Source: Caballeronia sp. NK8
GTDB taxonomy: Bacteria > Pseudomonadota > Gammaproteobacteria > Burkholderiales > Burkholderiaceae
Assembly: GCF_018408855.1 (NCBI RefSeq)
Contig: NZ_AP024327.1
Span: 186,001-250,000 of the forward strand
Direction: 5' to 3'
Length of the DNA: 64,000 nucleotides
Shown here: positions 28,260 to 45,557 of the stretch, one piece after another
How the letters are laid out: each line of letters begins with the position of its first letter
How positions within the stretch are numbered: the stretch's first letter is position 1
Made by a program: the position numbers and the translations under genes
Notes under the pieces: model-generated
Seen by the model: the letters and a program-made list of their open reading frames with translations, nothing else
Told to the model about the DNA's origin: nothing
Databases searched by the model: none

Positions 28260-29354
28260 TCAAGTACGCTTCCTCGGGGCTTTCGGAGGTGCGCCCGATG
28301 ACGCTCGTACGATTAACTCGGCCTCCAATTCAACGCTTCGAGCGGTACCCGGCTCTGAAAGCTCAGAAAGAATCATCCTTGCAGCATTTCTTCCGATTGC
28401 GGCGCTCGGGACACGGACGGTAGTAATCGGTATGGGTAGCTCGGACATAAGCTCAAAATCGTCGAATCCGACAACGCTTAGTTCGCTGGGAATCTTGTAG
28501 CCTTGATCCATCGCTTCGAGCATTGCGCCCATTGCAAACGAACCGTTGCCGCAAATCACCACGGTCGGCGGCTGCGGCGTGTTCATCACTTTCGAAAAGA
28601 GCTGTCGTCCGACGCGCGCGCCCCACACGCCGTCGACCATGTGAGCGGCGGATATTCCCAAACCGTGCTCTCCAAGCGCATCGCGCACTCCTTCACGTCG
28701 GGCCTGCGCACGATCGTTGGTATCGGTGTGCTGCGACAGCATCGCAAACCGGCGATGCCCCAGACCAACGAGATAAGTCGTGTAGTCGAAGAATGCGCGG
28801 TGGTTATCTATACCCACACAAAGCGAGTCGCTGTTTTCTCGATAAACGAATGTGTTGACGAACGGAATCTGGCGCTGCAAAAGAAGGGGTTGGAGATCTT
28901 GATGATGAGCTTCGCCTACCAGTACGACAGCATCGACTCCGCGTTCGAGCATCGTCCTGACTTGCCGATATTCGCGATCGAGGTCGTACTCCGAGCAGCC
29001 GAGCAGAAGCGTGTATCCAGCCTGTTCGAGTGACTCCTGGAGCGCCTGTATGGCTGAAGCGAAATGCTCATTGGCCAACGTTGGGAAAACTGCCCCGATT
29101 GTTCCGGTCCGCTGCGTTGCCAGTGCTCGTGCTGCGGCGTGCGGCACCCAGCCGAGATGATCGATCGCGACCTTGATGCGGGAGCGCAACTCGTCCGAGA
29201 CGACCGTCGGATTGTTCATCACTCTGGAAACGGTCGCCGATGACACACCGGCAAAGCGAGCGACGTCCCGCAAGGTCACACCCGCGGTGCGCGACCGTTT
29301 TCCGGCCGCGCGCGGTTCGGCCGCTTCTACTGATACTGGTTTGCTCTTCGCCAT
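28260..29354 (-). CDS. LacI-family transcriptional regulator
   Basis: A 364-residue regulator. The helix-turn-helix VTLRDVARFAGVSSATVSRVMNNP lies at about residues 25-48, after a basic N-terminal tail, and a periplasmic-binding-protein-like effector domain follows (FPTLANEHFASAIQ, then DAVVLVGE and FVNTFVYRENSDSLCVGIDN). LacI proteins usually repress and release DNA on binding a small ligand. ATG 29354 was chosen as the start because the helix-turn-helix then lies at a normal distance; an upstream start at 29522 gives a long unrelated tail. It diverges from the ABC importer operon. ACCGGT-centred palindromes at 41.6 and 42.9 kb have the form of LacI-family operators. Confidence 0.85.
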   Translation of the reverse strand: MAKSKPVSVEAAEPRAAGKRSRTAGVTLRDVARFAGVSSATVSRVMNNPTVVSDELRSRIKVAIDHLGWVPHAAARALATQRTGTIGAVFPTLANEHFASAIQALQESLEQAGYTLLLGCSEYDLDREYRQVRTMLERGVDAVVLVGEAHHQDLQPLLLQRQIPFVNTFVYRENSDSLCVGIDNHRAFFDYTTYLVGLGHRRFAMLSQHTDTNDRAQARREGVRDALGEHGLGISAAHMVDGVWGARVGRQLFSKVMNTPQPPTVVICGNGSFAMGAMLEAMDQGYKIPSELSVVGFDDFELMSELPIPITTVRVPSAAIGRNAARMILSELSEPGTARSVELEAELIVRASSGAPPKAPRKRT

Positions 29355-30037
29355 GCGTGGGGATGGTCGGGTTCGCGCGAGATGATCGATTATATCAACG
29401 CCTTTCCTCGTCACTCCGCCCGTCAGCGAATGCCATCGGCGGGACGGGATTGTTTGTCGAACACATGCTCGCGGTGCCTTCGATCGTTGTTCGTGGCGTA
29501 CGACCGAAAGCGCGACCTGCATCGATGGACCAAGAACTCGACTCAGGCGCAGACCTGCCGTGGTCAGAATGGATCGTGAGCGTTTGATGCAACGAAATGC
29601 ATTCGTCGATTTATATGTAGTACACCTGTCGAAACATTTGCATTGATCTGAAGAGGCAATGACTCACGAAACCCGTGAAACATCTGATCAGCCGCATTGC
29701 GACAAACAAAACAGAAATAGCGGAATGTAGGCGTCGTTCGCGTCTACCGAAGATTCCCATTGCACGCGCGTTGCCTCTTTCACATGGATCCAAACAGCGG
29801 GTTTAGCCCACGGGTATACCCGAATAAAGCACGCCAATTCCCGTGCTCGCGCGGCCTCCGCCCCCGATTCGGGAAATTCCCTACATAGCTTTCTATCAAG
29901 ATTGAATACAGTTCAATCAACGAACGTCGTCATATCTTGATGCTTTATCGGGCGCCAGACGCCGATCAGAGCGGCCCGCCCGGGCGTCCAAAAATGCTTG
30001 AACGATCGCTGCACTTCACTCGCGGAAGGAGACACAG
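29355..30037. other. 683-bp intergenic control region
   Basis: No convincing gene lies here. Two palindromes stand out: CGGGTATACCCG at 29811-29822, perfect over 12 bp, and GATTGAA-TACAG-TTCAATC at 29900-29918, with 7-bp perfect arms. Both are within about 230 bp of the permease start and are candidate sites for the LacI regulator next door or the IclR regulator at the far end of the operon. A short open frame at 29611-29793 has no family features and is not called. Confidence 0.45.
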
Positions 30038-30904
30038 ATGTCAATGAAGTTATCGTCGCGCCAGGTCGACGGCCTGCAAAGCGGAAACGGAGAGCAATCG
30101 GGCGCGGCCGAACGCCCCAAAGCACGTACGTCTGCCGGAATGCGCAAAGTCAAGCGGCTCGGCTGGAATCTGCTTCCACCGTTGACCTTCGTGGCCATCA
30201 TCGCAATCTGGGCGGCGGCGGTGCGCCTCTTCGACATCCCCGCGTACGTGATGCCGGGTCCCGGGCTGGTCTTCTCACGGCTCGTCGAGGAATATCCGCA
30301 GCTCTGGAGCAACTCGATCGTCACAGTGACGGAGATTGTCTGGGGCTTCGGACTGACGATTGTCACCGCAATCCCGGTAGGGCTCGTCATCGCGCTGTCG
30401 CCGCTTGCAAAGCAGGTGGTTTATCCGCCGCTCATGTTTCTCCAACTGGTCCCGAAGATTGCAGTGGCGCCGCTGTTCCTGGTCTGGCTTGGCTTCGGAA
30501 TCGAGTCGAAGGTGCTGCTCACCGTCCTGATGACCTTCTTCCCGTTGCTGCTGGCCAGCGTCAGCGGCTTTCAGATTCTGGACAATCGTCTGCTCTATCT
30601 GACGCAATCCATGGGCGCGAGCTCGTGGCAAACCTTTCGCTATCTGCGCCTGCCCGCAGCGCTTCCGGTCATCTTCTCCGGCATCAAGACGTCCGCCACC
30701 ATCGCCGCCACGGCTGCGATCGTCGCCGAGTTCGTCGGAGCGAACAAGGGGTTGGGCTACGTGCTGCTCCGAGGGACCAGCACGATGGACATCGGCCTGA
30801 CCTTCGCGGTAATTGCCGTGCTGACTTTCATCGGCATTGCTATCAACTACATCGTCGAATTCGCCGAATGGGCGATGACACCTTGGCAGCGCGATAAAAA
30901 CTAA
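30038..30904 (+). CDS. ABC importer permease, NitT/TauT type
   Basis: A 288-residue inner-membrane permease with about six helices after a basic N-terminal tail of about 45 residues. The EAA-loop region (LTQSMGASSWQTFRYLRLPAALP) that contacts the ATPase is near residues 185-208. It belongs to the SsuC/TauC group, which imports small anions such as sulfonates, nitrate, pyrimidine precursors or aromatic acids. AAGGAG precedes the ATG. It is the first gene of a run that also holds the binding protein and ATPase, so the importer set is complete. Confidence 0.88.
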   Translation: MSMKLSSRQVDGLQSGNGEQSGAAERPKARTSAGMRKVKRLGWNLLPPLTFVAIIAIWAAAVRLFDIPAYVMPGPGLVFSRLVEEYPQLWSNSIVTVTEIVWGFGLTIVTAIPVGLVIALSPLAKQVVYPPLMFLQLVPKIAVAPLFLVWLGFGIESKVLLTVLMTFFPLLLASVSGFQILDNRLLYLTQSMGASSWQTFRYLRLPAALPVIFSGIKTSATIAATAAIVAEFVGANKGLGYVLLRGTSTMDIGLTFAVIAVLTFIGIAINYIVEFAEWAMTPWQRDKN

Positions 30905-30974
30905 CGTCGAGCACAAAAGAGCGATTGGCCCGATGTCGCCGTGGCCGATACCAACACCTTTGGAGACTAAGAAG

Positions 30975-31982
30975 ATGCTTCGTTTTATCAGCCGTACGCT
31001 GGCCGCGAGCGCTGTGTCGTCAGCGTTGGTTTTTGGAGTGAGTGCCACCGCCGTCGCAGCGACGCCTGTCACATTCCAGCTGAATTGGGTCGCGGGGGGC
31101 TCGAATGCGGGATTTGCCGCGGCGCTGACCGAGGGTTACTACAAGGAAGCAGGCCTTGACGTCACGTTGATCGAAGGCAATGGATCGGGCAATACGGCTC
31201 AACTCGTGGCCGCGAATCGCGTGCAGCTGGCCTACGCCGATGCCGTGGCGGTGAGTCAGCTCATCGCGAAGGGCGCGCCGATGAAGGTCATCTCGACAGT
31301 CTATCAATCCAATCCCAACGAAGTCTCGGCGTTGAAGAAGACGAATATCAACTCGATCAACGACCTCAAAGGCAAGAAGGTGGGCGTTCCGTCCGGGTCG
31401 TCTCAAACGACGATGCTTCCGCTTTTCCTGAAGGCGAATGGCCTGAAGGAATCGGAGGTGAACCTGATCAACATGCCGCTGACGTCCATGGTCCCGACCT
31501 TGTTGCAGGGACAAGTCGACGCGATCCTCGGATCGATCGATTCATATCAGATCCAGCTTGAGGCTCAAGGCGCGCAACTGACCAACTTTCGGTTCGCGGA
31601 CTACGGTGTGCCGACCGTCAGCACGTCGATCTTCGCGAACGATACCTATCTCAAGGAAAACAGCGATGTGGTCAGGAAGTTCGTTGCCGCGAGCCTGAAA
31701 GGCTGGAGCTTCGCGCTCGATAACCCGGCCAAGGCAATCAAGGATCTGAAGGCGGTCTTCCCGAATCTGTCGGAGAAGACGGCGACGGCGGAGCTTGCGG
31801 CCATCACGCCGCTCTTCTGCAGCGGCGGCGCGAAGTACGTAGGCAAAGCGGAAGACGCGCAATGGGTGAAGACGCAGGATCTGTTGTCGCAAGTCGGTCT
31901 GTTGCCCGCCGGTCGCGACCCGAAGTCGTATTACACGAACGACTTCCTTCCGCCGACGTCGGCCATGCGCGCGTGCAAGTGA
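30975..31982 (+). CDS. ABC importer substrate-binding protein, NMT1/THI5-like
   Basis: A 335-residue periplasmic protein with a signal peptide (cleavage near AVAA-TPVT) and the NMT1/THI5-type fold: FQLNWVAGGSNAGFAAALTEGYYKEAGLDV at the start of the mature part and KKVGVPSGSSQTTMLPLFLKANGL in the second lobe. It binds the imported substrate. ATG 30975 lies at a normal distance from the signal core; the open frame runs 14 codons further upstream. Its place between permease and enzymes means it probably recognises the compound the island degrades. Confidence 0.87.
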   Translation: MLRFISRTLAASAVSSALVFGVSATAVAATPVTFQLNWVAGGSNAGFAAALTEGYYKEAGLDVTLIEGNGSGNTAQLVAANRVQLAYADAVAVSQLIAKGAPMKVISTVYQSNPNEVSALKKTNINSINDLKGKKVGVPSGSSQTTMLPLFLKANGLKESEVNLINMPLTSMVPTLLQGQVDAILGSIDSYQIQLEAQGAQLTNFRFADYGVPTVSTSIFANDTYLKENSDVVRKFVAASLKGWSFALDNPAKAIKDLKAVFPNLSEKTATAELAAITPLFCSGGAKYVGKAEDAQWVKTQDLLSQVGLLPAGRDPKSYYTNDFLPPTSAMRACK

Positions 31983-32007
31983 CCAAAGAAGTAACTAAAG
32001 GATCGTC

Positions 32008-32532
32008 ATGACTGAACAGCGAAACATGGGACTGCGTTACTCGGACCTCGAAGTCGGATTGAAATTTCGCAGCCCCGGACGAACGATCACCGACGCGGAC
32101 CTGGTTGGTTTCGCAGGTCTCACAGGTGACTTCTCCGAACTTCATACGAGCGATGTGTACGCGAAAGCCAGCCAGTTCGGCCGCCGAGTCGCGCACGGCA
32201 TGCTCGGGCTCGCCTATGCGCACGGCCTGATGTGGGCGCGCACGGGCGAGTTGCGCGAGACCGCGATCGCGTTTCTCGGTATCAACGAATGGAAGTTTCT
32301 CAACCCCATATTTGTCGGCGACACGATCTTCGTCGACTACGAGATCAGTGAGCTTCGCGAGAGCAAGTCCAGGCCGACACAAGCCATCGCGACCTTTGAT
32401 GTCTCGGTCGTGGATCAGGACAACCGCGTCGTTCAGAAAGGCAAAAAAGCTTTGCTGGTGTCCAAGGTTCCCCTTTCTGCTGTCGCAGCAAGTAGTTCGT
32501 CCGCCGCGAGCGGCGAGGAGCGGAAGTCATGA
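32008..32532 (+). CDS. MaoC-family (hotdog-fold) hydratase
   Basis: A 174-residue protein with the MaoC/R-hydratase pattern: the catalytic Asp41 and His46 in GDFSELHTSD, followed by RVAHGMLGLAYAHGL. It should add water to, or remove it from, an enoyl-CoA. The C-terminal 20 residues are a Ser/Ala-rich tail. AAGGA precedes the ATG. It sits inside the transporter operon, its last four bases overlapping the ATPase start, so a CoA-bound intermediate is implied. Confidence 0.85.
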   Translation: MTEQRNMGLRYSDLEVGLKFRSPGRTITDADLVGFAGLTGDFSELHTSDVYAKASQFGRRVAHGMLGLAYAHGLMWARTGELRETAIAFLGINEWKFLNPIFVGDTIFVDYEISELRESKSRPTQAIATFDVSVVDQDNRVVQKGKKALLVSKVPLSAVAASSSSAASGEERKS

Positions 32533-33380
32533 GTAGTCAGGTTGCGGAACAGCGGGACGCTGCGACGAAGTCCGGCGTACCGATCAGTATTCGACGCGTC
32601 GCCAAGACCTTCGGCGAAGACAGCGACAAGCCGTTTCAGGCGCTCAAGGAAGTCAATATCGACATCCAGCCGGGCGAGTTCGTCTCCATCGTCGGAGCTT
32701 CCGGATGCGGCAAGAGCACCTTGATGTTGATGGTCGCGGGTCTGCTCAAGCAGAGTCAGGGCGAGATTCTGGTCAACGGCAAGCCGGTGACGAAGCCGAT
32801 CACCGATGTCGGGATCGCGTTTCAGGACCACTTGCTGCTCGAGTTCAGAACAGCGCTCGAAAACGTGATGCTGCAGGCCGACATTCGCGGCCTGCCGAAG
32901 AAGAAGATCGAGGCACGTGCAAAGGAACTGTTCGAGCAATTGCGTCTGACGCATGCGATGCAGAAGTATCCGCGGCAGTTGTCGGGCGGTATGCGGCAGC
33001 GCGTCTCGCTCGTCAGAACGCTGGTTCACGATCCGTCCGTCATTCTGATGGATGAACCGTTCGGCGCACTGGATGCATTGACCCGGCTTCAGGTCCGGAT
33101 GGACCTCGAGGCGCTGTGGCTGCGTCGCCGCCCGACCGTCGTATTCATCACGCACAGCGTGGAAGAAGCGGTGGGATTGTCGGACCGCATCTTCGTGATG
33201 AGCCCGAATCCCGGTGAGGTGGTCGATGAAATCAAGGTCGATCTGCCGCGTCCGCGCCCCATTGTGCTCGGCGACGCGCCGGAATTTTCGGCCTACGTCG
33301 ACCGCATCTATGGGCATTTCGAACGCATGGGCGTGCTGCATGGCATAGAGGTGCCTAAGGCTACGTCCGCTGCATCGTAA
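32529..33380 (+). CDS. ABC importer ATPase, NitT/TauT type
   Basis: A 283-residue ATPase with Walker A GASGCGKST at about residues 57-65, the Q-loop near FQDHLLLEF, signature LSGGMRQR and Walker B VILMDEPFGALD. It powers the permease at 30038. The stretch VIFITHSVEEAVGLSDRIFVMSPNPGEVVDEIKVDLPRPR-like ending is typical of the SsuB/TauB group. It overlaps the MaoC gene by four bases, showing tight co-translation. Confidence 0.9.
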   Translation: MSSQVAEQRDAATKSGVPISIRRVAKTFGEDSDKPFQALKEVNIDIQPGEFVSIVGASGCGKSTLMLMVAGLLKQSQGEILVNGKPVTKPITDVGIAFQDHLLLEFRTALENVMLQADIRGLPKKKIEARAKELFEQLRLTHAMQKYPRQLSGGMRQRVSLVRTLVHDPSVILMDEPFGALDALTRLQVRMDLEALWLRRRPTVVFITHSVEEAVGLSDRIFVMSPNPGEVVDEIKVDLPRPRPIVLGDAPEFSAYVDRIYGHFERMGVLHGIEVPKATSAAS

Positions 33381-33413
33381 ATCTGGCAATCGAAGGAAAA
33401 GCGACAGGACGAC

Positions 33414-34208
33414 ATGAGCACAGCAACGGAACACTCTAGCCGCTTGGTCACGACAGAGGTGAACGGTTTTATCGCCACCGTGGGGATCTGTCACGGGCCG
33501 CTGAATCTGGTCACGACCGACTTGTTGCGCGAGTTGAACGAGGCGTTCTCGGCAGTGTCCGCGATGAGCGATATCCGTTGCGTGGTTCTGCATGGAAGTC
33601 AGTCGCGCGCCTTTTGCGCGGGCAGCGACATCAAGGAATTCGCCCGAATTCGCGAGCAGGCCAGCGAAAAGAAGATCCTTTTCGAAGATATGGTGCTTCG
33701 CCAACTGGCGCGCCTGCCGATGCCGACCATCGCGGCGATCGACGGCGCAGCGCTCGGCGGTGGTCTCGAACTCGCCCTGGCTTGCGATCTGCGCGTGGCG
33801 CGACACGGCGTGGCGATGGGCCTGACCGAATCGCGTCTGGGCGGGCTTGCCGGTAGCGGTTCGCTGAGACTCACGCGCCTCGTCGGCCCTGCGCGAGCCA
33901 AGCTGATGTTGTTCACCGGCGAGACCATCGATTGCGATCAGGCGCTGTCGTGGGGTCTGGTCGATCGCGTGACACATGACGGAACCGCGCTGGATGCTGC
34001 GCTCGAACTCGCCGGAACCATCGCGGCGCGAGGACCGGTGTCGAACCGCCTCGCCAAGGAACTCGTCGATGCCGCGCAGGATTTCCCGCTCGATGCGGGC
34101 TTGTCGATGTCGACCGTGGCGCTCCAGAAGATATTCGACAGCAGAGACCTGCATGAAGGTGTGGATGCGTTCTTCGCCAAGCGCCCACCGTCGTTCAAGG
34201 GCCATTGA
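33414..34208 (+). CDS. Enoyl-CoA hydratase/isomerase (crotonase) family protein
   Basis: A 264-residue crotonase-fold protein. The oxyanion-hole stretches CAGSDIKEFARI and GAALGGGLELALACDLRV are clear, and LTESRLGGLAGSGSL carries the conserved Glu. It should act on an acyl-CoA made in this island (hydration, isomerisation or hydrolysis). Together with the MaoC protein the operon has two possible hydratases. Confidence 0.85.
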   Translation: MSTATEHSSRLVTTEVNGFIATVGICHGPLNLVTTDLLRELNEAFSAVSAMSDIRCVVLHGSQSRAFCAGSDIKEFARIREQASEKKILFEDMVLRQLARLPMPTIAAIDGAALGGGLELALACDLRVARHGVAMGLTESRLGGLAGSGSLRLTRLVGPARAKLMLFTGETIDCDQALSWGLVDRVTHDGTALDAALELAGTIAARGPVSNRLAKELVDAAQDFPLDAGLSMSTVALQKIFDSRDLHEGVDAFFAKRPPSFKGH

Positions 34209-34223
34209 GGCCAGGCAAAGATC

Positions 34224-34964
34224 ATGAGTGAAATGAATCTGGAAATCGGCATGACCGAAAACGCGCAAGCGGCTGACTCGGCCTTGCTCGGCGACGGCGC
34301 GGTTCTCGTCTGGAACGATGTGGTATCCGAAGGCCGCGAGCAGTTTTATGAGTGGCATGACAAGGAGCACATCCCCGAAAGGCTTTCGATTCCTGGCTTC
34401 CGACGCGGACGCCGGTATGTCCGCTCGGGTCACTCGCCCGAGTGGCTGACCATGTACGAGGCGGTCGATCTGGACGTGGTGGTGTCGCCGGCTTATCTCG
34501 AACGCCTGAACGCGCCGACGCCCGCAACGGTCGATACGCTGCGCTACTTCCGCAACACATCGAGAGCGGTATGCCGAATCGTGCACTCGGTCGGGTCGAG
34601 TAGCGGCGGTCACGTGCTCGCGTTGCGTCTGGATGTACCCGCGGCGCGGGCCGAAGCGATGAAGACATTTCTGTGCACGGACGTGTTTCCGCGTGCCGCT
34701 GCGTTGACGAGTGTCGTCGCCTGCCATCTCTATATGGCCGATCAATCCGGCAGCCATATCGACACCGCCGAGTCGAGCACGCGTGAGTTCGATGTGCCCG
34801 CCTGGGTCGTACTCGTCGAAACCACCACACCGGAAGCGGCCGAAAGCGCCCGTGATCTGCTCGACGCCCGCACGCTCGAATCGCTCGGTGTGACGGTGCG
34901 CCCCGACGGCACAACTTATTCGATGGAAATCTGCCGGCTGGCAAATGCTCCGGCAGACATTTGA
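34224..34964 (+). CDS. DUF4286-like dimeric alpha/beta-barrel protein
   Basis: A 246-residue protein with a characteristic segment near residues 40-58 (REQFYEWHDKEHIPERLSI) followed by PGFRRGRRY, seen in DUF4286-type proteins related to dimeric alpha/beta barrels such as EthD and the antibiotic monooxygenases. A second, weaker half from about residue 130 may be a repeat of the fold. No catalytic residues can be assigned. It is translated 15 bp after the crotonase gene, inside the operon, so a role in handling the island's substrate is likely. Confidence 0.6.
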   Translation: MSEMNLEIGMTENAQAADSALLGDGAVLVWNDVVSEGREQFYEWHDKEHIPERLSIPGFRRGRRYVRSGHSPEWLTMYEAVDLDVVVSPAYLERLNAPTPATVDTLRYFRNTSRAVCRIVHSVGSSSGGHVLALRLDVPAARAEAMKTFLCTDVFPRAAALTSVVACHLYMADQSGSHIDTAESSTREFDVPAWVVLVETTTPEAAESARDLLDARTLESLGVTVRPDGTTYSMEICRLANAPADI

Positions 34965-34992
34965 ACGCTGGACCACTCAAGAGAGACTGCGA

Positions 34993-35844
34993 ATGAAACT
35001 CGTAAGACACGGGCAACCCGGCCAGGAGCGCCCGGGCATCATCGACGCACAAGGTCAGATTCGCGACCTAAGCGACCATTGCAAGGATTTCGATCCCGCG
35101 TTTTTCGCGGGCGATGGCCTGCGGCAATTGGCGACCATCAATCTGCAGAGCCTTCCGGTCGTCGCAGCCGATACGCGTCTTGGGCCGTGCGTCGCGCAAC
35201 CCGGGACTTTCCTGGCCATCGGCCTGAACTACGTTCAGCATGCCATCGAAACGAACGCGCCGATCCCAACGGATCCCATCATCTTCAGCAAGGCGCCGTC
35301 CTGCGTGTCCGGTCCGAACGATCCGGTGCTGCTTCCCAAAGGCTCGACGAAGACCGACTGGGAAGTGGAGCTTGCCTTCGTCGTCGGGAAGCGCGCTCAT
35401 TATGTCGAGGAGTCCGATGCGCTCGATTACATCGCGGGCTATTTCATCTGCAACGATGTGTCCGAGCGCGAGTTCCAGCTCGAACGAAGCGGCCAGTGGC
35501 AGAAAGGAAAGATGTTTCCTACCTTCGGCCCTATCGGTCCGTGGCTCGTCACATCCGATGAAATCGCTGACGTGCAGAACCTCGGGCTCTGGCTCGAACT
35601 GAACGGCAAGCGCATCCAGAACTCGTCGACCAGCGACATGATTTTTTCGATCGCGAAAATTCTTTCCGACGTGAGTCAGTACGTGGCCCTGCTGCCGGGC
35701 GACATCATTACCACCGGCACGCCGCCGGGCGTCGGTCTGGGCATGAAGCCCGAGGCCTATCTGAAGCCCGGCGATGTCATGCGGCTCGGCGTGGACGGGC
35801 TCGGTGTGCAGGAACAGCGCGTTCTGCGTTGGGGCGAACAGTGA
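34993..35844 (+). CDS. Fumarylacetoacetate-hydrolase-family protein
   Basis: A 283-residue enzyme of the FAH family. The metal-binding and catalytic stretch is FLAIGLNYVQHA, with DWEVELAFVVGKRA and TTGTPPGVGLG later. Relatives hydrolyse C-C bonds of acylpyruvates or isomerise and decarboxylate dioic acids with Mg2+. It is the best clue to a ring- or chain-cleavage step in this island. ATG 34993 overlaps no upstream gene and has a GAGAG element; the frame is open from 34945 inside the previous gene. Confidence 0.85.
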   Translation: MKLVRHGQPGQERPGIIDAQGQIRDLSDHCKDFDPAFFAGDGLRQLATINLQSLPVVAADTRLGPCVAQPGTFLAIGLNYVQHAIETNAPIPTDPIIFSKAPSCVSGPNDPVLLPKGSTKTDWEVELAFVVGKRAHYVEESDALDYIAGYFICNDVSEREFQLERSGQWQKGKMFPTFGPIGPWLVTSDEIADVQNLGLWLELNGKRIQNSSTSDMIFSIAKILSDVSQYVALLPGDIITTGTPPGVGLGMKPEAYLKPGDVMRLGVDGLGVQEQRVLRWGEQ

Positions 35845-35869
35845 GCGACCACGAACGACTGAGCGGATC

Positions 35870-37492
35870 ATGGAAAGAATAACTGCAGACGAAGCGGCGA
35901 AGCTGATCGAGGACGGAGACGCGATCCTCATCAGCGGATCGGGCGGGGGGCATTCGGTGCCGGAAGCGTTGCTTGCGGCGGTGGAGCGGCGCTTTCTCGA
36001 CGAAAGCAAGCCACAGGGACTCACGTCGGTCAGCGTAGTGGGCGTGGGAGACCGCGCGGCGCTGGGCGCAAGCCATCTGGCGCACGAGGGCTTGTTGCGA
36101 CGTGCGATCACCAGCGCGCTGGTCGACTCGCCCGGTCTGGTGCGTTTGGCCGCCGAAAACAAGATCGAAGCCTACACGTTTCCTCAAGGCGTCCTTTCGC
36201 AGTTGATGCGCGACATGGCCGCCGGACGCCCCGGTCTCCTGACCAAGACGGGACTCCATACGTTTGTCGATCCGCGCCAGCAAGGTGCGCGACAGAGCCC
36301 GTGTACGCCGGAGGACTTCGTCGAAGTCGTCGATCTCGCGGGCGAGGAGTGGCTCTTCTTCAAGCCCGTGCCGGCCAACGTCGCATTCCTGCGCGGGACG
36401 ACGGCAGATGAAGACGGCAATGTCACGATGGAGGAGGAAGCGGTCCTGGGCGAAATGCTCGCCATGGCGCAGGCGACGCGCCGCGCGGGCGGCATCGTCG
36501 TGGTTCAGGTCAAGCGGATGGCCAGACGCGGAACCTTGCCCGCCAAGCAGGTGAAGATTCCCGGCATTCTGGTGGATTTCGTGGTGGTGGATGCCGAGCA
36601 GCGGCAGACCTACGCGACGTACTATGACCCGAGCTACTCCGGCGAACTGCGGATTCCGGTGGAAGGCATCAAGCCTTTGCCATTCGGCGCCCGCAAGGTC
36701 ATTGTCAGACGCGCAGCGATGGAGCTTTTTCCCGGCGCGATCTGCAACCTCGGCGCGGGGATTTCCACGGGCTTGTCCACCATAGCCGCCGAGGAAGGTT
36801 TGCTCGACGCGGTTTATCTGACCAACGAACAGGGGATCATCGGCGGCGCGCCGATCACCGGAAGGGATTCCGGGGGCGGCCAGAATTTCGCCGCCATGAT
36901 CGAGCAGCCCGCGCAGTTCGATTTCTACGATGGCGGCGGACTCGACGTCGCGTTCCTTTCGTTTGCAGAGGTCGACGCGCAGGGCAATGTCAACGTGTCC
37001 CGATTCGGCGACAAGATCATCGGTGTAGGCGGCTTCATCAATATCAGCGCGAACGCCCGATGCATGGTCTTCAGCGGCACCTTGACCGCAGGAGATCTCG
37101 ACGTGGGTTGGGAGCAGGGCCGCACGATCATCAGGCAAGAGGGGCGGCATCAGAAATTCGTGCCGAAGCTCGAGCAGATCTGCTACAGCGCGTCGATGGC
37201 GCGTGCAAAGGGGCAAACTGCTTTCTTCGTCACCGAACGCGCGGTATTCACGATCGGCGAGCACGGGCTCGAGCTGATCGAGATTGCACCGGGCGTCGAT
37301 GTTGAACGCGACGTGATTGCGCACATGGGATTCAGACCGGCTGTGTCGAAGGTGCTCAAGGAGATGGATGCGCGAATCTTCGATCCTGCTCTCATGAGGC
37401 TTGGCGCGGACGTACATGGCAAGGCAAGGCGCTACCGATCCGAGCGCGTTGCGAAATGGCATAATTCCCGCGATCGAGGCGCACAGCGATGA
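35870..37492 (+). CDS. Acyl-CoA:carboxylate CoA-transferase (copy 1)
   Basis: A 540-residue fused alpha-beta CoA-transferase of family I (YdiF/propionate CoA-transferase type). The N-terminal half has SGSGGGHSVPEALL and the C-terminal half has NEQGIIGGAPITGRDSGG, in which Glu320 fits the catalytic glutamate that forms the glutamyl-CoA thioester. It should activate the imported acid with CoA from acetyl- or another acyl-CoA. A close paralogue lies on the other strand at 39977-41587. The shikimate-dehydrogenase-like gene overlaps its end by four bases. Confidence 0.88.
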   Translation: MERITADEAAKLIEDGDAILISGSGGGHSVPEALLAAVERRFLDESKPQGLTSVSVVGVGDRAALGASHLAHEGLLRRAITSALVDSPGLVRLAAENKIEAYTFPQGVLSQLMRDMAAGRPGLLTKTGLHTFVDPRQQGARQSPCTPEDFVEVVDLAGEEWLFFKPVPANVAFLRGTTADEDGNVTMEEEAVLGEMLAMAQATRRAGGIVVVQVKRMARRGTLPAKQVKIPGILVDFVVVDAEQRQTYATYYDPSYSGELRIPVEGIKPLPFGARKVIVRRAAMELFPGAICNLGAGISTGLSTIAAEEGLLDAVYLTNEQGIIGGAPITGRDSGGGQNFAAMIEQPAQFDFYDGGGLDVAFLSFAEVDAQGNVNVSRFGDKIIGVGGFINISANARCMVFSGTLTAGDLDVGWEQGRTIIRQEGRHQKFVPKLEQICYSASMARAKGQTAFFVTERAVFTIGEHGLELIEIAPGVDVERDVIAHMGFRPAVSKVLKEMDARIFDPALMRLGADVHGKARRYRSERVAKWHNSRDRGAQR

Positions 37493-38292
37493 GCGCGCCT
37501 ACCATCACGGGAAAGACCCGGTTGTTTTGCATCGTCGGGGACCCGATTGTTCAGGTGCGCTCGCCGCAGGTGTACACCGAGCAGTTCGCGGCCGCCGGCA
37601 TCGACGCCGTTCTGGTCCCGATGCAAGTGCCCGCTGATCGATGTGCGGAGATCATTCCGGCGCTGATGGCCTTGGGCAACCTCGATGGCTTGCTTGTCAC
37701 GGCGCCCTTGAAAGCGCGCGTGGCGGCATTCGCGGATCGCCTCGGCCCCACGGCCTCCTGCATTGGCGCCGTCAATGCGTTGCGCCGCGAGGCCGACGGT
37801 TCCTGGACAGGCGACATGTTCGACGGCGAAGGCTTCGTTCGCGGTCTTCTTGCAAAAGGCGCGCGTGTTCGCGGCCGGCGCGTGCTGCAGTTTGGCGCGG
37901 GCGGGGCGGGAAGCGCTATCGCCTGCGCGCTCGCAAACGCCGGCGTGCAATCGATTCGAATCGTCAATCCGAACCTGCGGCAGACACAATCGCTCGTTGC
38001 GTCGCTGGCGAAGGTTTTTCCCGAGTGCGATGTGCAGGCCGCAAGCGACGATCGTGGCGATATCGACATGATCGTGAATGCGTCGCCCGTGGGAATGCGT
38101 TCAGGCGACGGCCTGCCGGGCGATCTGGGTGCGGTGACTTCAGACACTTTGTTCGGCGATGTCGTCCTGTCTTCCTCGCCGACCGCCTTCACTCAAGCGG
38201 CGCTCGATCATGGCTGTCAGTGGGCGGATGGCCGGGATATGCATTCCGGCCAGATCGACGCCATCATGAACTTCTTCGTCGCACGCACGTAG
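37489..38292 (+). CDS. Shikimate-dehydrogenase-like oxidoreductase
   Basis: A 267-residue protein of the AroE fold. The catalytic pair is kept: Lys75 in TAPLKARV and Asp112 in MFDGEGF. The nucleotide-binding loop is FGAGGAGSAIACALANAG. The substrate-binding SxS of true AroE (near residue 15) is not clear: the region reads VQVRSPQVY. In a CoA-type catabolic operon with no other aromatic-pathway genes, a role on shikimate, quinate or another cyclic hydroxy acid is more likely than aromatic amino-acid synthesis. The start overlaps the CoA-transferase stop by four bases. Confidence 0.8.
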   Translation: MSAPTITGKTRLFCIVGDPIVQVRSPQVYTEQFAAAGIDAVLVPMQVPADRCAEIIPALMALGNLDGLLVTAPLKARVAAFADRLGPTASCIGAVNALRREADGSWTGDMFDGEGFVRGLLAKGARVRGRRVLQFGAGGAGSAIACALANAGVQSIRIVNPNLRQTQSLVASLAKVFPECDVQAASDDRGDIDMIVNASPVGMRSGDGLPGDLGAVTSDTLFGDVVLSSSPTAFTQAALDHGCQWADGRDMHSGQIDAIMNFFVART

Positions 38293-38316
38293 TTACTTTT
38301 TTTGACCGGTAATCTT

Positions 38317-39132
38317 ATGGCTCATATTCCCGCAGAGCGCTGCCTTGACATCATCGAATTGCTCGCGGACGGTGCTGTTACGATGCCGCTCGGTGAGATC
38401 GCAACGCGACTGGATCTGCCGAAGAGTGGTGCCCATCGATTGCTCGCGACTCTGGTCGATCTCGGATGGGCCGAACAGGACGCGGAGACCGGTTTTTATC
38501 GACTCTCGATGCGGCTGGCCATCCTGGGGCAGCGATTTTTCGTCGCCACGGGCATCCCGGATATATGCCAGCCGCTGGTCGATCGTCTGGCGGGCCAGTC
38601 GCGCGAGTTTGTCCGACTGGCGGTGGTCGACGGATCGTCGTTGACATGGGTCGCGCATGCGCAGGGCGCAACGGGCGGGCTGCTTTATCAACCCACGCTG
38701 GGAAGCAACACCGTTCCGCTGCACGCGACGGCCACGGGCAAGGCGTGGCTCGCTACCTTGGCCACCGAACAAGCGGCGGAGAACGTGTTGCGTGTCGGAT
38801 TCGGCGATGCCGAGAAGTACGGTCCGAACGTCATCCGTTCGCTGGACGCGCTTCTGCAAGAAATCGAGGCGACCAGGAATCGCGGATACGGAATCGCGAT
38901 GAACGAAGGCGAGCCCGGCGTGAGCGCAATAGCGGCAGCCATTCGTCCACCGAGCGGCGGCCCGGCGCTGGGCGTCGTCAGCGTGGCGGGGCCGAGCGCG
39001 CGCATGACGGAAAGCCGTATCGCCGAGATGGCGCCGTTGGTCACGCAGGCCGCGACGGAACTGGCGTCTTTCTGGCCGCTGCGTACCCGTCCCAGCAAGT
39101 TGGCGACCGCGAGCAATATGATCGCTGCGTGA
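38317..39132 (+). CDS. IclR-family transcriptional regulator
   Basis: A 271-residue regulator. The winged helix (MPLGEIATRLDLPKSGAHRLLATLVDLGW) lies at about residues 24-52 and the IclR effector domain follows (PLHATATGKAWLA and GYGIAMNEGEPGVSAIAAAIRPP are typical). IclR proteins often activate catabolic operons for aromatic or organic acids. It follows the shikimate-dehydrogenase-like gene by 24 bp and probably reports on the island's substrate. An ACCGGT core (38305-38310) lies just upstream of the start. Confidence 0.87.
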   Translation: MAHIPAERCLDIIELLADGAVTMPLGEIATRLDLPKSGAHRLLATLVDLGWAEQDAETGFYRLSMRLAILGQRFFVATGIPDICQPLVDRLAGQSREFVRLAVVDGSSLTWVAHAQGATGGLLYQPTLGSNTVPLHATATGKAWLATLATEQAAENVLRVGFGDAEKYGPNVIRSLDALLQEIEATRNRGYGIAMNEGEPGVSAIAAAIRPPSGGPALGVVSVAGPSARMTESRIAEMAPLVTQAATELASFWPLRTRPSKLATASNMIAA

Positions 39133-39177
39133 GGTAGCGGAAGCTCGGGGGTCTCGGCCAGGAAGCCGCCAATCCGG

Positions 39178-39987
39178 TCATGCCGCGAACAAGTCAGACG
39201 CGATGGATATGAAGCCCGCCATCGATATGAATGGCTTCTCCTGTACTGATGGAAGACAGCCCGTTGCCAATGACACGACGGCCTTCGCGAGTTCTTCCTC
39301 GCGCCCCCATCTCGCGATGGGCGAGAAACCCCGTTCGATCTTTTGGTCGTAATCGCTCTTCGCCACTTCGGTCATTTTCGTTTGGAAAATGCCGGGGCGA
39401 ACTTCGTACACGGGAATCTCGAACTCCGCGAGCCTCGCGGCGAACAGCTTGGTCAAAGTCGTGATCGCAGCTTTCGATATGCAGTATTCGGCCCGGTTGG
39501 TCGCGACCAGAAACGCATTGGCCGATGAAATGTTGATGATCGAGCGAAAGCAAGTGCGCGCCGCATTTTCTTGAGCGAAACGACGCGCCAGTTTCTGCGA
39601 CAGGAAAAATGTCCCGCGAAGATTGACATCGATGAGCCTGTCGAAGCTTGCCGGCGTCACGTCCAGCAGATCGCCCCGGGTTTCCACGCTGATTCCGGCG
39701 TTGTTGACGAGGCATGCAACGGCACCCAAGGACGTCTGCACCTGATCCAGCAATGCATCGTGCTGATCGATATCCGCGATATCGGCTTCAAAAAAGGCGG
39801 CTCGTCGCCCTTCGGATTGAATTGTCTCGAGCGTTTCGTTTGCATCGTCATCGCACACGAGGTCCGCAATCGCGACATCGAACCCGGCCGCGCCTAATGC
39901 CCGGGCCATGGCCGCGCCGAGTCCGCGTCTCCCGCCGGTCACGATCGCAACGCGTGAGGGCTCATCTTTAAACGGCTCAATGATCAT
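39178..39987 (-). CDS. SDR-family oxidoreductase, C-terminus frameshifted
   Basis: A 269-residue frame with the SDR fold: VTGGRRGLGAAMARALG near the N-terminus, NNAG in the middle, and the catalytic YCISK. The last 25 or so residues (GCLPSVQEKPFISM onward) do not look like an SDR. In the next frame the same DNA encodes SSISTGEAIHIDGGLHIHRV and stops at 39194, the normal SDR ending. A single-base deletion near 39258-39264 in this gene, or in the assembly, explains it. It overlaps the start of the upstream CoA-transferase's end by 11 bp, so the two are one operon. Confidence 0.75.
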   Translation of the reverse strand: MIIEPFKDEPSRVAIVTGGRRGLGAAMARALGAAGFDVAIADLVCDDDANETLETIQSEGRRAAFFEADIADIDQHDALLDQVQTSLGAVACLVNNAGISVETRGDLLDVTPASFDRLIDVNLRGTFFLSQKLARRFAQENAARTCFRSIINISSANAFLVATNRAEYCISKAAITTLTKLFAARLAEFEIPVYEVRPGIFQTKMTEVAKSDYDQKIERGFSPIARWGREEELAKAVVSLATGCLPSVQEKPFISMAGFISIASDLFAA

Positions 39988-41587
39988 GCGTGCGGGACCA
40001 TTCGGCGACCCGCTCGGAGCGATAGCGTCGTTCCTTACGTGACATGTCCTCGGCGAGACCCATGAGGCCCGTGCCGAAGAGTCGGACGTCCATCTCCCGC
40101 ACATCGGAAGCAACGGGCGTCCTGAATGCCATTTGCCCGAAGATATCGCGCTCGAGATCGATGCCCGGCGCGATCTCGATCAGTTCAAGGCCCGCCTCTC
40201 CAGCCCGGAACACGGCCCGCTCCGTCACGAACAAGGCGGAGTTTCCGCGTTGTCTAGCGAATGCAGCGCTATAGGAAATTTGCTCGAGTGCGCTGACGAA
40301 CTTGCGGTGCTGTCCTTCACGAACGACAGTCGCGCGGCCATGCATCCATTGCACGTCCAGACCGCCGGCGGTGAAGGTGCCGCTGAAAATCACGCGTTTC
40401 GCGTTTTGACTGATATTGACGAAGCCTCCGACCCCGACGATCTTGTCGCCGAAGCGGCTGATATTGACGTTGCCTTGCGCGTCGACTTCCGCAAAGGAGA
40501 GAAAGGCGAGGTCGAGGCCACCGCCATCGTAGAAATCGAACTGTGATGCCTGCTCGATCATGGCGGCGAAGTTCTGCGCGCCGCCCGAGTCACGGCCCGT
40601 GATGGGCGCGCCTCCAATCAGCCCTTGTTCATTCGTCAGCACGACGGCATCGAGCAATCCTTCTTCGGCCGCGACGGTCGATAAGCCGGTCGAGACTCCG
40701 GCGCCGAGATTGCAGATAGCGCACGGATACAGTTCCATCGCCGCCCGTCTCACGATCACTTTGCGCGGGCCGAACGCAATCGGCTTGATCTCGGCAACCG
40801 GCACGCGCAATTCGCCCGAATAACTCGGATCGTAGTAGGTGGCGTAGGTCTGCCGCTGTTCCGCCTCGACCACGACGAAATCCACCAGAATGCCCGGGAT
40901 CCTGACTTGTTTGGGCGGCAACGTGCCGCTGCGCGCCATTCGTTTCACCTGCACGACGACCACGCCTCCGGCACGGCGCGTTGCCTGTGCCATGGCGAGC
41001 ATTTCGCCCAGCACGGCCTCTTGTTCCATGGTGATATTGCCGTCCTCGTCGGCTGTCGTGCCACGGAGAAACGCAACATCGATGTGAAGCGGCTTGAAGC
41101 GAAGCCACTCTTCGCCGTCGAGGTGAATGAGTTCGACGAGTTGCTCTTCCGTCCTCGGACTTTGCCGGCCACCTCGCTGGCGAGGATCGATGAAGGTATG
41201 CAAGCCCGTCTTCGTGATCAATCCAGGCCGTCCCCCGGCCATTTCGCGCATGAGCTGCGAGAGGACGCCCTGCGGCAGCGTGTAGGCCTCGATCAGATCG
41301 CTTGCAGCCATCTTCAGCAGGCCGGGCGAATCGATGAGCGCGCCCGATATGGCGCGCCTGATCAGCCCGACCTGTGCGAGATGATCGGCACCCAGCGAGA
41401 TGCGGTCTCCGATTCCTACTACGCTGATCGATGTCAGATCGCGCGGCTGTTGTTCGTTCCGGAATCGCTGTCCGACTGCCGCGAGCAATGCCTCGGGTAC
41501 GGCATGCCCTGCGCCCGATCCGCTGATCAGGAGAGTGTCGCCCGTATGCACAAGGCTCGCGGCTTCGTCAGGGGTGATTCGTTGCAT
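39977..41587 (-). CDS. Acyl-CoA:carboxylate CoA-transferase (copy 2)
   Basis: A 536-residue paralogue of the copy at 35870, matching at most positions by eye across its whole length. The catalytic Glu320 in TNEQGLIGGAPI is conserved, as is RGTTADEDGNITMEQEAVLGEM. The genes are on opposite strands about 2.5 kb apart, so this is not a tandem duplicate. It is followed by the SDR gene. A LacI-type palindrome lies 48-65 bp upstream of its start, a position suited to repression. Confidence 0.88.
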   Translation of the reverse strand: MQRITPDEAASLVHTGDTLLISGSGAGHAVPEALLAAVGQRFRNEQQPRDLTSISVVGIGDRISLGADHLAQVGLIRRAISGALIDSPGLLKMAASDLIEAYTLPQGVLSQLMREMAGGRPGLITKTGLHTFIDPRQRGGRQSPRTEEQLVELIHLDGEEWLRFKPLHIDVAFLRGTTADEDGNITMEQEAVLGEMLAMAQATRRAGGVVVVQVKRMARSGTLPPKQVRIPGILVDFVVVEAEQRQTYATYYDPSYSGELRVPVAEIKPIAFGPRKVIVRRAAMELYPCAICNLGAGVSTGLSTVAAEEGLLDAVVLTNEQGLIGGAPITGRDSGGAQNFAAMIEQASQFDFYDGGGLDLAFLSFAEVDAQGNVNISRFGDKIVGVGGFVNISQNAKRVIFSGTFTAGGLDVQWMHGRATVVREGQHRKFVSALEQISYSAAFARQRGNSALFVTERAVFRAGEAGLELIEIAPGIDLERDIFGQMAFRTPVASDVREMDVRLFGTGLMGLAEDMSRKERRYRSERVAEWSRTHDH

Positions 41588-41634
41588 CGCGTTTCTCGGT
41601 TCCGGACTAAAGGCAGGGCGCTCTCGCCCGATAC

Positions 41635-41652
41635 AATGTAACCGGTATCATT
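41635..41652. promoter_or_regulatory. LacI-type operator upstream of CoA-transferase copy 2
   Basis: AATGTAACCGGTATCATT is an imperfect palindrome centred on CCGG, 48 bp before the start codon of the CoA-transferase gene on the minus strand. Read on the other strand it differs by one base from the site at 42855-42872. Nothing else is recognised in 41588-41796. Confidence 0.6.
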
Positions 41653-41796
41653 ATGATGATCTCGCTGTTGGAGACGCTCCATCAGGGTAATCTCGGACAC
41701 GATGATTTTTCAACGATTTGAGATTCGGCAAGGCGCTGGTGACGTGTCAGGCGTGTAACCGCTTTCTAACGACCGGGCACACCGCGCACCGATGTC

Positions 41797-42723
41797 TTAT
41801 GGAACAGATTTCCCGCGCGCGGCTTCGAGGATTGCGTACCAGTCTTCGCGACTCAACCTGATGCGAAGACCCTCGAGTGCCTGCTGCAACGACTCCACGC
41901 GCCGGCTACCCACGAGCAGGTAGGGCGCACAGGGAAGCGTGAAGATCCACGCATAGACGATCGAAACCAGAGACGATGCATTGTATTTTTCTGCCAGCGT
42001 AATTAACTCGCGGCGAAGCAGGAGCGCGAGTTCGTCGGTCTCGGAGAAGAGACGTCCGCCTCCGAGAGCAGACCAGATCATCGGCGACACCGCTGCCGAC
42101 GACAGCGCGGTGAAAACATCATCGTCCAGTGCCTGAAGTTCAAAAGGGGAGAACTCGATCTGGTTGGTCGCGAGCGCAACTTTGGCGCGAAGGGATTCGA
42201 ACTGTCGCGTCGTAAAATTCGAAACGCCGAACGCGCGAATTTTGCCCTGCCGTATCAGGCTTTCTGCGGCGTCGGCGATCTCGTCGTTGTCCGCAAGATA
42301 ATCCGGGCGATGAATGAGAAACAGATCGAGATGATCCGTCTTCAGACGCTGCAATGAGCGCTCGACGGCCGCTTGCAGATAGGCGCGACTCGTATCGTAG
42401 TGTTTGACTCCGACGGCACCCGCAGATGAACCGCGCGGCCTGATTCCCGCTTTGCTGACGATCTGCATCCTGTCGCGTAACGACGGCGTCTGAGTCAGCG
42501 CATCGCCGAAAAGCGCTTCGACCTCGCCGCCGCCGTAGATGTCGGCGTGATCGAACGTCGTGACGCCCAACGCCATGCTTTCCTGCACGTAGCGATTGAG
42601 CTCTGCGGCGGAGATGTTCCACTCGCGAACCCGCCACATTCCGGCTACCACCTTCGAGCAGCCGATCGCGGCTAGTGTGTCCAGGCTTCGCTTCTCGGCA
42701 GGTGCGTGTGCATCTTCATTCAT
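41797..42723 (-). CDS. Aldo/keto reductase
   Basis: A 308-residue NAD(P)H-dependent reductase of the AKR superfamily (YdhF-like). The catalytic tetrad is visible: Asp in TFDHADIYGGGEVE and its Tyr, Lys in VSKAGI, and His in LIHRPDYL. GSRRVESLQQALEG near the C-terminus binds the cofactor phosphate. It probably reduces a carbonyl from the island's pathway. It diverges from the truncated MFS gene, with a shared LacI-type operator between them. Confidence 0.87.
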   Translation of the reverse strand: MNEDAHAPAEKRSLDTLAAIGCSKVVAGMWRVREWNISAAELNRYVQESMALGVTTFDHADIYGGGEVEALFGDALTQTPSLRDRMQIVSKAGIRPRGSSAGAVGVKHYDTSRAYLQAAVERSLQRLKTDHLDLFLIHRPDYLADNDEIADAAESLIRQGKIRAFGVSNFTTRQFESLRAKVALATNQIEFSPFELQALDDDVFTALSSAAVSPMIWSALGGGRLFSETDELALLLRRELITLAEKYNASSLVSIVYAWIFTLPCAPYLLVGSRRVESLQQALEGLRIRLSREDWYAILEAARGKSVP

Positions 42724-45048: not shown

Positions 45049-45072
45049 AGATTTAGGCGTCCGGGGGCCGCC

Positions 45073-45546: not shown

Positions 45547-45557
45547 GGGTTATTTTC

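What the first reader, a model, noticed from the sequence alone, without database searches (positions are those of the whole stretch)
28260..42723. Catabolic island for an unidentified acid with ABC uptake and two CoA-transferases
A complete NitT/TauT importer is fused in operon structure to a MaoC hydratase, a crotonase, a DUF4286-like protein, an FAA-hydrolase-family protein, a CoA-transferase and a shikimate-dehydrogenase-like protein. A second CoA-transferase with an SDR, and an aldo/keto reductase, lie on the other strand, and LacI and IclR regulators flank the core. CoA activation by transferase, ring or chain opening by an FAH-type enzyme and a cyclic-hydroxy-acid dehydrogenase do not match any pathway I know as a set. 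It is the best candidate for an undescribed system in this window.
Basis: partly seen in the sequence, partly recalled or inferred. Interest (0 to 1): 0.75.

Follow-up and report, generated by a model that had tools for sequence, protein, structure and literature searches.

The report
Undescribed CoA-dependent acid catabolism operon
A Caballeronia-like bacterium carries a conserved set of uptake, CoA-transfer, dehydrating, oxidising and carbon-bond-cleaving enzymes that looks like an undescribed way of eating a hydroxylated, probably sugar-like, acid; the genes travel together in related bacteria, but the food molecule is still unknown.

Summary
In detail: 28260-42723 encodes LacI, a complete NitT/TauT importer with MaoC between its binding-protein and ATPase genes, crotonase, a DUF4286-like protein, an FAH protein, a YdiF-type CoA-transferase, a shikimate-dehydrogenase-like (SDH) protein, IclR and, on the other strand, SDR, a second CoA-transferase and AKR. 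The set co-occurs: 25 of 35 loci found with the DUF4286-like protein also hold CoA-transferase and SDH, and 16 of 35 keep permease-SBP-MaoC-ATPase-ECH-DUF in one order; Rhizobium relatives have it too. Ten open-library searches gave no paper on it. SDH, CoA-transferase and MaoC recur together in four further cluster types. The FAH aligns end to end with L-2,4-diketo-3-deoxyrhamnonate hydrolase, and D-erythronate/L-threonate genes lie in 5 of 32 DUF-SDH-CoA-transferase loci, so I read it as a CoA-thioester variant of the diketo-hydrolase sugar-acid pathway, ending in pyruvate plus a short hydroxy acid, perhaps a tetronate. Substrate, order and products are inferred. The second CoA-transferase belongs to the clade of a sister cluster. 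New variant of a known kind; moderate interest.

The parts
28260..29522 (-). LacI-family regulator (DNA-binding part starts near residue 80; true start probably internal)
   Evidence: Pfam LacI + Peripla_BP_3; 83-93% conserved beside the operon in L040-L043
29870..29881 (+). Palindrome GGGAAATTCCC, possible operator
   Evidence: 15 of 100 shuffles also gave a match with up to 1 mismatch; found upstream of the permease in L041-L043 with at most one change, not in L040; function inferred
29901..29917 (+). Inverted repeat ATTGAA-TACAG-TTCAAT, possible operator
   Evidence: 0 of 100 shuffles; TTGAA-N5-TTCAA also roughly 90-150 bases upstream of the permease in L040-L042, L050, L054, not in L043; pattern chosen after looking at the alignment; function inferred
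30038..30904 (+). NitT/TauT-type ABC permease
   Evidence: Pfam BPD_transp_1
30933..31982 (+). NMT1-type substrate-binding protein
   Evidence: Pfam NMT1 188.3 bits; SsuA_fam 95.6 bits, under its cut-off 163.5
32008..32532 (+). MaoC-type enoyl-CoA hydratase/dehydratase
   Evidence: Pfam MaoC_dehydratas 74.8 bits; best structure 1q6w
32529..33380 (+). NitT/TauT-type ABC ATPase
   Evidence: Pfam ABC_tran
33414..34208 (+). Crotonase (enoyl-CoA hydratase type)
   Evidence: Pfam ECH_1 155.7 bits; both catalytic Glu positions present (recalled motif, sequence)
34224..34964 (+). DUF4286-like protein, tandem ferredoxin-like (alpha+beta barrel) fold; proposed isomerase/tautomerase
34993..35844 (+). FAH-superfamily hydrolase, 2,4-diketo-3-deoxy sugar-acid hydrolase type
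   Evidence: 8gsr E 7.9e-89 over residues 2-281 of 283; NF053535 399.6 bits, under its cut-off 500
35870..37492 (+). CoA-transferase 1, single-chain YdiF type
   Evidence: YdiF 2ahu E 7.6e-132, Glu column kept
37489..38292 (+). Shikimate-dehydrogenase-like NAD(P) dehydrogenase
   Evidence: Pfam Shikimate_dh_N; best structure 4k28; Lys/Asp pair kept
38317..39132 (+). IclR-family regulator
   Evidence: Pfam IclR_C, HTH_IclR
39178..39987 (-). SDR oxidoreductase
   Evidence: Pfam adh_short; NF009386 309.8 bits over its cut-off 250
39977..41587 (-). CoA-transferase 2, 73% identical to CoA-transferase 1
   Evidence: in the clade of the sister (LacI/AKR) cluster
41797..42723 (-). Aldo/keto reductase, YdhF type
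   Evidence: Pfam Aldo_ket_red; best structures 4r9o and YdhF 1og6

Best explanation
An inducible operon for uptake and breakdown of a polyhydroxylated, probably acid-sugar-like, carboxylic acid, using a CoA-thioester variant of the diketo-hydrolase sugar-acid pathway. Steps, all inferred from family: (1) the NitT/TauT importer takes up the acid; (2) the YdiF-type CoA-transferase moves CoA onto it (or off a later acyl-CoA); (3) MaoC and crotonase remove or re-add water on the CoA ester, doing what GarD/IlvD-type dehydratases do on free sugar acids; (4) the SDH-like enzyme (or the SDR) oxidises a hydroxyl, giving a 2,4-diketo-3-deoxy acid; (5) the DUF4286-like protein isomerises or tautomerises it; (6) the FAH enzyme hydrolyses it to pyruvate and a short hydroxy acid, perhaps a tetronate, which DenD/OtnI/OtnK-type enzymes (DenD and OtnK are elsewhere in this genome; in some relatives in the cluster) carry to central metabolism. 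IclR and LacI regulate. The second CoA-transferase, AKR and LacI derive from a sister cluster for a related compound.
For: Conserved gene set and order (Rhizobium and other relatives). FAH matches L-2,4-diketo-3-deoxyrhamnonate hydrolase over its whole length, E 7.9e-89. Published sugar-acid routes split into aldolase (route 1) or 4-dehydrogenase + hydrolase (route 3) (PMC11199699, passages); the clusters here split alike: DHDPS-type protein in type B (L117-L119, L127, L142), DUF+FAH in type A and its sister, around the same SDH-CoA-transferase-MaoC core. DenD/Otn/LtnD genes lie in 5 of the 32 distinct loci, window not counted, that hold DUF, SDH and CoA-transferase: L051, L053, L059, L123, L124. 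DUF relatives sit with a GarD-like dehydratase and Gfo/Idh in L071-L074 and L106, with CUT1 sugar importers in L071-L074. Acyl-CoA variants of an acid-sugar route have precedent (PMC6365646, passages).
Against: No substrate evidence. FAH is missing in 5 of the 25 CoA-transferase+SDH loci (L046, L051, L053, L055, L056), two of which have tetronate genes, so FAH may not be what makes the tetronate. DenD and OtnK are each over the family cut-off in 22 of 23 genomes searched, with a copy seen in the cluster only in G406, so the link is weak for this window. NF053535 is under its cut-off. No step explains why CoA activation should replace an ordinary sugar-acid dehydratase. DHQ-dehydratase-like genes near DUF or the core (L132, L133, L145; the L145 one at 130.6 bits just over a subfamily cut-off of 130) point to cyclic compounds. 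DUF relatives in L065 and L130 have no such partners in view.
Confidence: 0.38

Rival explanations
1. Hydroaromatic route: the substrate is a shikimate/quinate-like ring acid. CoA-transferase makes the CoA ester, MaoC hydrates the ring double bond, SDH oxidises the new hydroxyl, crotonase or the DUF4286-like protein opens the ring, FAH finishes: a polyhydroxy counterpart of the BadK-BadH-BadI sequence (recalled).
For: SDH accompanies the core in each of the five cluster types; L145 has MaoC, CoA-transferase, crotonase, a type II DHQ-dehydratase-like gene (130.6 bits, one subfamily cut-off of 130 met, TIGR01088 not met) and SDH in a row; DUF relatives neighbour DHQ dehydratases in Cupriavidus and Mesorhizobium; Foldseek's first hit for the DUF model is bacterial chalcone isomerase, which closes and opens a ring (reaction recalled).
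Against: SDH lacks the first of two serines seen in 3o8q, as do the other rows readable there, 51 of 51; scores are under the AroE cut-offs; ring carbons would not directly give a tetronate with a CH2OH end (chemistry, inference); FAH is of the sugar-acid type.
Confidence: 0.2
2. Deoxy-aldonate route: a 2-deoxy (C6) acid is activated by CoA transfer, oxidised at C3 by SDH or SDR, and split to acetyl units and a tetronate; the CoA-transferase returns CoA from tetronyl-CoA to fresh substrate. MaoC and crotonase invert or shift a 3-hydroxyl.
For: Klebsiella michiganensis is proposed to use an acyl-CoA deoxyribonate route with a CoA-transferase (PMC6365646, passages); tetronate genes in some relatives; L044 has a 3-hydroxyacyl-CoA dehydrogenase about 2 kb before the operon.
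Against: No thiolase or beta-keto acid cleavage enzyme among the genes of 28260-42723; FAH would be unexplained.
Confidence: 0.15
3. CoA module downstream of FAH: FAH releases a hydroxy acid, the CoA-transferase activates it and MaoC plus crotonase epimerise the 3-hydroxyacyl-CoA for ordinary beta-oxidation.
For: MaoC and crotonase are hydratases of opposite stereochemistry in their families (recalled); this CoA-transferase family includes enzymes that accept short hydroxy acids (recalled).
Against: CoA-transferase and SDH overlap by 4 bases and recur together in clusters without FAH (types B, C, D), so SDH seems to belong with the CoA step.
Confidence: 0.12
4. A pathway already described in literature that I could not search (subscription papers).
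For: The library holds only open-licence papers, and several listings were capped at 12 rows.
Against: Ten searches, each on part of the set and seen as listings, showed no paper on it; no NCBIfam cut-off was reached by the ten proteins.
Confidence: 0.12

Closest known systems
Non-phosphorylative L-rhamnose/L-fucose route 3 (LRA5/LRA6, FucF/FucG)
   Same: FAH hydrolase of the same type (8gsr E 7.9e-89); an alcohol dehydrogenase of the SDR or SDH kind available; pyruvate plus hydroxy acid as proposed products
   Different: CoA-transferase, MaoC and crotonase in the operon; no sugar-acid dehydratase or lactonase there; FAH under the equivalog cut-off
Acyl-CoA deoxyribonate pathway proposed for Klebsiella michiganensis (PMC6365646)
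   Same: Sugar acid handled as CoA ester; a CoA-transferase in the cluster
   Different: Klebsiella has CoA-synthetase, thiolase and glycerate kinase; here MaoC, SDH-like enzyme, DUF4286-like protein and FAH
Four-carbon acid sugar pathway (DenD/LtnD-OtnI-OtnK-OtnC)
   Same: Shares loci with the core in L051, L053, L059, L123 and L124
   Different: Not among the genes of 28260-42723; the best OtnK and DenD of this genome are at C2:109036-112744
Cyclohexanecarboxyl-CoA ring cleavage (BadK, BadH, BadI; recalled)
   Same: Order hydratase, dehydrogenase, crotonase on a CoA ester is possible here
   Different: CoA ligase and SDR there; CoA-transferase, SDH-like enzyme, FAH and DUF here

Membership tests
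L-2,4-diketo-3-deoxyrhamnonate hydrolase (NF053535) | Score over the curated equivalog cut-off | tested here: not met
   399.6 of 500 bits
FAH acylpyruvate-type hydrolases | Full-length alignment with the His-Glu lid motif and acidic metal-binding motifs kept | tested here: met
   alignment to 8gsr; the roles of these motifs are recalled
Non-phosphorylative L-rhamnose/L-fucose pathway | Sugar-acid dehydratase and lactonase in the operon | tested here: not met
   genes of 28260-42723; an IlvD at 24984-26843 outside the island is a dihydroxy-acid dehydratase, 1179.8 bits against a cut-off of 710
Shikimate dehydrogenase AroE (TIGR00507) | Score over cut-off | tested here: not met
   126.3 of 200.2 bits
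Shikimate dehydrogenase AroE | Catalytic Lys-Asp pair | tested here: met
   present in all 52 rows; aligned; role recalled
Shikimate dehydrogenase AroE | Ser-x-Ser substrate site | tested here: not met
   Val-Arg-Ser here against Ser-Lys-Ser in 3o8q; role recalled
YdiF-type CoA-transferase (family I) | Single chain with catalytic Glu | tested here: met
   2ahu alignment; role of the Glu recalled
FadX equivalog (NF052271) | Score over cut-off | tested here: not met
   411.7 and 419.5 of 750 bits
Itaconyl-CoA hydratase RipB/Ich (NF038241) | Score over cut-off | tested here: not met
   72.8 of 340 bits
Taurine/aliphatic sulfonate importers | SBP over taurine or SsuA family cut-offs | tested here: not met
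   47.3 of 304.25 and 95.6 of 163.5 bits
D-erythronate/L-threonate pathway | DenD or LtnD, OtnI, OtnK in the operon | tested here: not met
   absent from the genes of 28260-42723; DenD and OtnK present elsewhere in the genome; LtnD and OtnI not searched there
Acyl-CoA deoxyribonate pathway | Thiolase and beta-hydroxyacyl-CoA dehydrogenase in the operon | tested here: not met
Bacterial chalcone isomerase fold | Same fold and same catalytic His | tested here: inconclusive

The most novel reading that the evidence does not exclude
SDH-like dehydrogenase + YdiF-type CoA-transferase + MaoC form a reusable, undescribed core for CoA-dependent breakdown of polyhydroxylated (acid-sugar or hydroaromatic) acids in Proteobacteria, completed by interchangeable modules (DUF4286-like + FAH, DHDPS-type aldolase + sugar isomerase, acyl-CoA dehydrogenase, or DHQ-dehydratase-like + crotonase), with the DUF4286-like protein as a new isomerase or ring-opening enzyme.
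Probability: 0.35. Interest if true: 0.68.

Novelty: new variant of a known kind. Interest (0 to 1): 0.45.

Why it matters
If right, it adds a CoA-thioester branch to the known sugar-acid pathways and gives a first function to a widespread DUF4286-like family (1901 relatives at E <= 0.001) and to part of a paralogous family of shikimate-dehydrogenase-like enzymes (up to 12 matches per genome, true AroE probably among them). It also gives a concrete growth-phenotype test.

Tried and rejected
Taurine/sulfonate uptake: SBP far under the cut-offs. Itaconate pathway (RipB/Ich): MaoC far under the cut-off and no CitE-type lyase among the genes. True shikimate dehydrogenase: rejected on cut-offs and on the Ser-x-Ser site. 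That the second CoA-transferase is a recent tandem duplicate: rejected, the two copies fall in two starred clades that each hold other species. Type B sugar isomerase as a named enzyme: best structures are uncharacterised or 'Xylose isomerase', no NCBIfam hit. Profile search of the DUF alignment against PDB sequences: one chain at E 0.37, not meaningful. PF01796 in the own genome told nothing on this locus beyond the genome's size and the window's place. The two palindrome patterns were chosen after seeing the alignment, so the shuffle counts are not a fair test. Contig lengths shared by the DUF and SDH hit lists (14 of 120 each, 13 of them at least 4 kb; 0.19 expected after jitter) are a proxy only. 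More distant CoA-transferases (51% or less) in L105, L107, L134 and L135 lack one or more of the trio in view, and no MaoC was scored in L156; so the trio is a rule for the closer copies only. Of the 70 plasmid hits listed I opened 13 regions. Rows dropped: the tree and the alignment left out 13 loci (12 repeats of genomes already held, 1 partial), hits covering 90% or less of the query and translations with stops; so broken copies (L047, parts of L124) are not in them. Rows of VIA-align beyond the 50 shown are unknown; nothing is concluded from that.


Full report
What is there. The window lies in a 9.2-Mb genome in 7 contigs whose closest named relatives at this locus are Caballeronia turbans and C. 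calidae. I moved four starts by inference: FAH 34993, CoA-transferase 1 35870, IclR 38317, SDR 39987. The ten genes from the permease to IclR are spaced by -4 to +33 bases on one strand, with MaoC and the ATPase, and CoA-transferase 1 and SDH, overlapping by four bases. LacI diverges upstream; SDR, CoA-transferase 2 and AKR run the other way downstream.

Is it a unit? I built an alignment of the DUF4286-like protein and scanned one genome per species: 35 loci. Of these, 25 hold both a CoA-transferase and an SDH; the other ten are L044 (neither within the 10 kb), L048 (contig ends inside FAH) and eight with a more distant DUF protein (L064, L065, L067, L068, L071-L074). Permease-SBP-MaoC-ATPase-ECH-DUF stand in this order and strand in 16 of 35 (L040-L046, L048, L050-L057). 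FAH is present in 20 of the 25 and absent in L046, L051, L053, L055 and L056. As a proxy in metagenomes, 14 contig lengths are shared between the 120 best DUF hits and the 120 best SDH hits.

Distribution is patchy. In a sample of 399 genomes of the order, 59 have some DUF match but apart from the own genome the best (lowest E-value) is 41% identical. Among 101 relatives, SDH of 88% or more over the full length is in four other genomes (G450, G438, G435, G418; G448 partial) and 60% in G454. In 398 genomes of the phylum no listed CoA-transferase outside the own genome exceeds 52% at E <= 1e-140; in 397 genomes of another order (centre G490) eight have one of 60-65%.

Cluster types. Type A is the window's. 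A sister arrangement in Caballeronia and Paraburkholderia has LacI and a different MaoC (67-69% to the Rhizobium WL3 one) divergent from CoA-transferase-SDH-DUF-FAH, next to an MFS whose best NCBIfam hit is the sialate type (243 bits, under the cut-off 604) and in some a CUT1 sugar importer or AKR (L058-L063, L069, L070, L128). The tree of 52 CoA-transferases puts window copy 1 with the importer-linked type and copy 2 with the LacI/AKR type. So LacI, AKR and CoA-transferase 2 in the window go with the sister cluster (inference), and hybrids such as L045, L050 and L054 hold genes of both. Type B (L117-L119, L127, L142) has CoA-transferase-SDH-MaoC with a DHDPS-family protein and a sugar isomerase instead of DUF and FAH (no isomerase was scored in L118); L126 mixes A and B. 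Type C (L138-L140, L143, L144) adds an acyl-CoA dehydrogenase. Type D (L145, one locus) has MaoC, CoA-transferase, crotonase, a type II DHQ-dehydratase-like gene and SDH. The shared trio is SDH, CoA-transferase and MaoC. It does not hold for the more distant CoA-transferases in L105, L107, L134 and L135, and no MaoC was scored in L156.

Link to acid sugars. Of 32 distinct loci with DUF, SDH and CoA-transferase (the 25 above plus L113, L123, L124, L126, L128, L137, L141; window and repeats not counted), five carry tetronate genes: L051 (D-erythronate dehydrogenase inside the operon, 3-oxo-tetronate kinase and 2-oxo-tetronate isomerase behind it, all three over their cut-offs), L053 (kinase by similarity), L059/L148 (DenD by similarity, a second copy in that genome), L123 (denD, ltnD, otnI, otnK as annotated) and L124 (DenD as annotated, OtnI and OtnK by similarity). 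Against this, DenD and OtnK each pass their cut-off in 22 of 23 genomes searched; only in G406 was a copy seen in the cluster, in G1004 and G1077 a DenD lies some 22-26 kb away on the same contig, so the ability is common and the link is suggestive only. DUF relatives without CoA-transferase sit with a GarD-like dehydratase, Gfo/Idh, SDR and CUT1 importers (L071-L074), with GarD-like, FAH, 2-keto-4-pentenoate hydratase, SDH and Gfo/Idh (L106 in this genome), or without recognised partners (L065, L130).

How it most likely works. In the published routes for L-2-keto-3-deoxyfuconate, one branch uses an aldolase and another a 4-dehydrogenase plus hydrolase (PMC11199699, passages). Type B and type A clusters look like the same split around one CoA-dependent core. 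I therefore propose uptake, CoA transfer, dehydration/hydration on the CoA ester, oxidation, isomerisation and hydrolysis to pyruvate plus a hydroxy acid. Shown: gene content, conservation, enzyme families, active-site columns, tree. Inferred: order, substrate, products, roles of DUF, MaoC and crotonase. Precedent for acid sugars as CoA esters is the proposed Klebsiella deoxyribonate route (PMC6365646, passages and outline). Rivals (hydroaromatic acid; 2-deoxyaldonate; CoA module after FAH; already known) are given with their tests.

Regulation. Two palindromes lie between LacI and the permease, at 29870-29881 and 29901-29917. TTGAA-N5-TTCAA recurs roughly 90-150 bases upstream of the permease in L040-L042, L050 and L054 but not in L043, and GGGAAA-N-TCCC in L041-L043 but not in L040 (repeats of the same genomes not counted). 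They are candidate operators of IclR or LacI.

Literature. Ten searches of the open-licence library, each on part of the set, gave no paper on it in the rows listed; lists were capped at 12 rows of 47, 36 and 18. PMC10580937 on erythronate was seen only in a listing. I cannot speak for subscription papers.

Verdict. A real, conserved catabolic operon without a description that I could find, a new variant of a known kind.

Noticed in passing
window 26968-27534: IS110-type transposase fragment (189 aa, matching positions 2-139 of a 343-position model) between ilvD (24984-26843) and the LacI gene.
   Followed up: no
window 43612-46413: DHA2-type MFS exporter (best hits, under their cut-offs) with a TetR regulator just downstream of the island.
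   Followed up: no
window 46929-47843: XerC/integron-like tyrosine recombinase about 4 kb beyond the island; possible mark of a mobile region.
   Followed up: no
own genome C3:605001-660000 (L108-L110): A second, more distant island with two CoA-transferases (39-44%), two DHDPS-type proteins, two sugar isomerases, acyl-CoA dehydrogenase, SDRs, MaoC and SDH.
   Followed up: partly
own genome C5:662001-682000 (L106): GarD-like dehydratase, DUF4286-like, FAH and 2-keto-4-pentenoate hydratase genes with IclR, two MFS, cupin, SDH and Gfo/Idh: a related acid-sugar-like cluster.
   Followed up: partly
L131 7162-17199 (Aminobacter plasmid pUSP3): DUF4286-like gene between a TPP-dependent protein and Gfo/Idh, isomerase, second TPP-dependent protein, ALDH, cupin and IclR genes, looking like a cyclitol pathway.
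   Followed up: no
L126 4960-14614 (Paraburkholderia sp. PREW-6R): Another island with two CoA-transferases (66% and 78%) and two MaoC genes around DUF, FAH, SDH and a sugar isomerase.
   Followed up: partly
L046 9035-11660: tcuA and tcuB (tricarballylate dehydrogenase, over cut-off) directly behind an FAH-less version of the operon.
   Followed up: no
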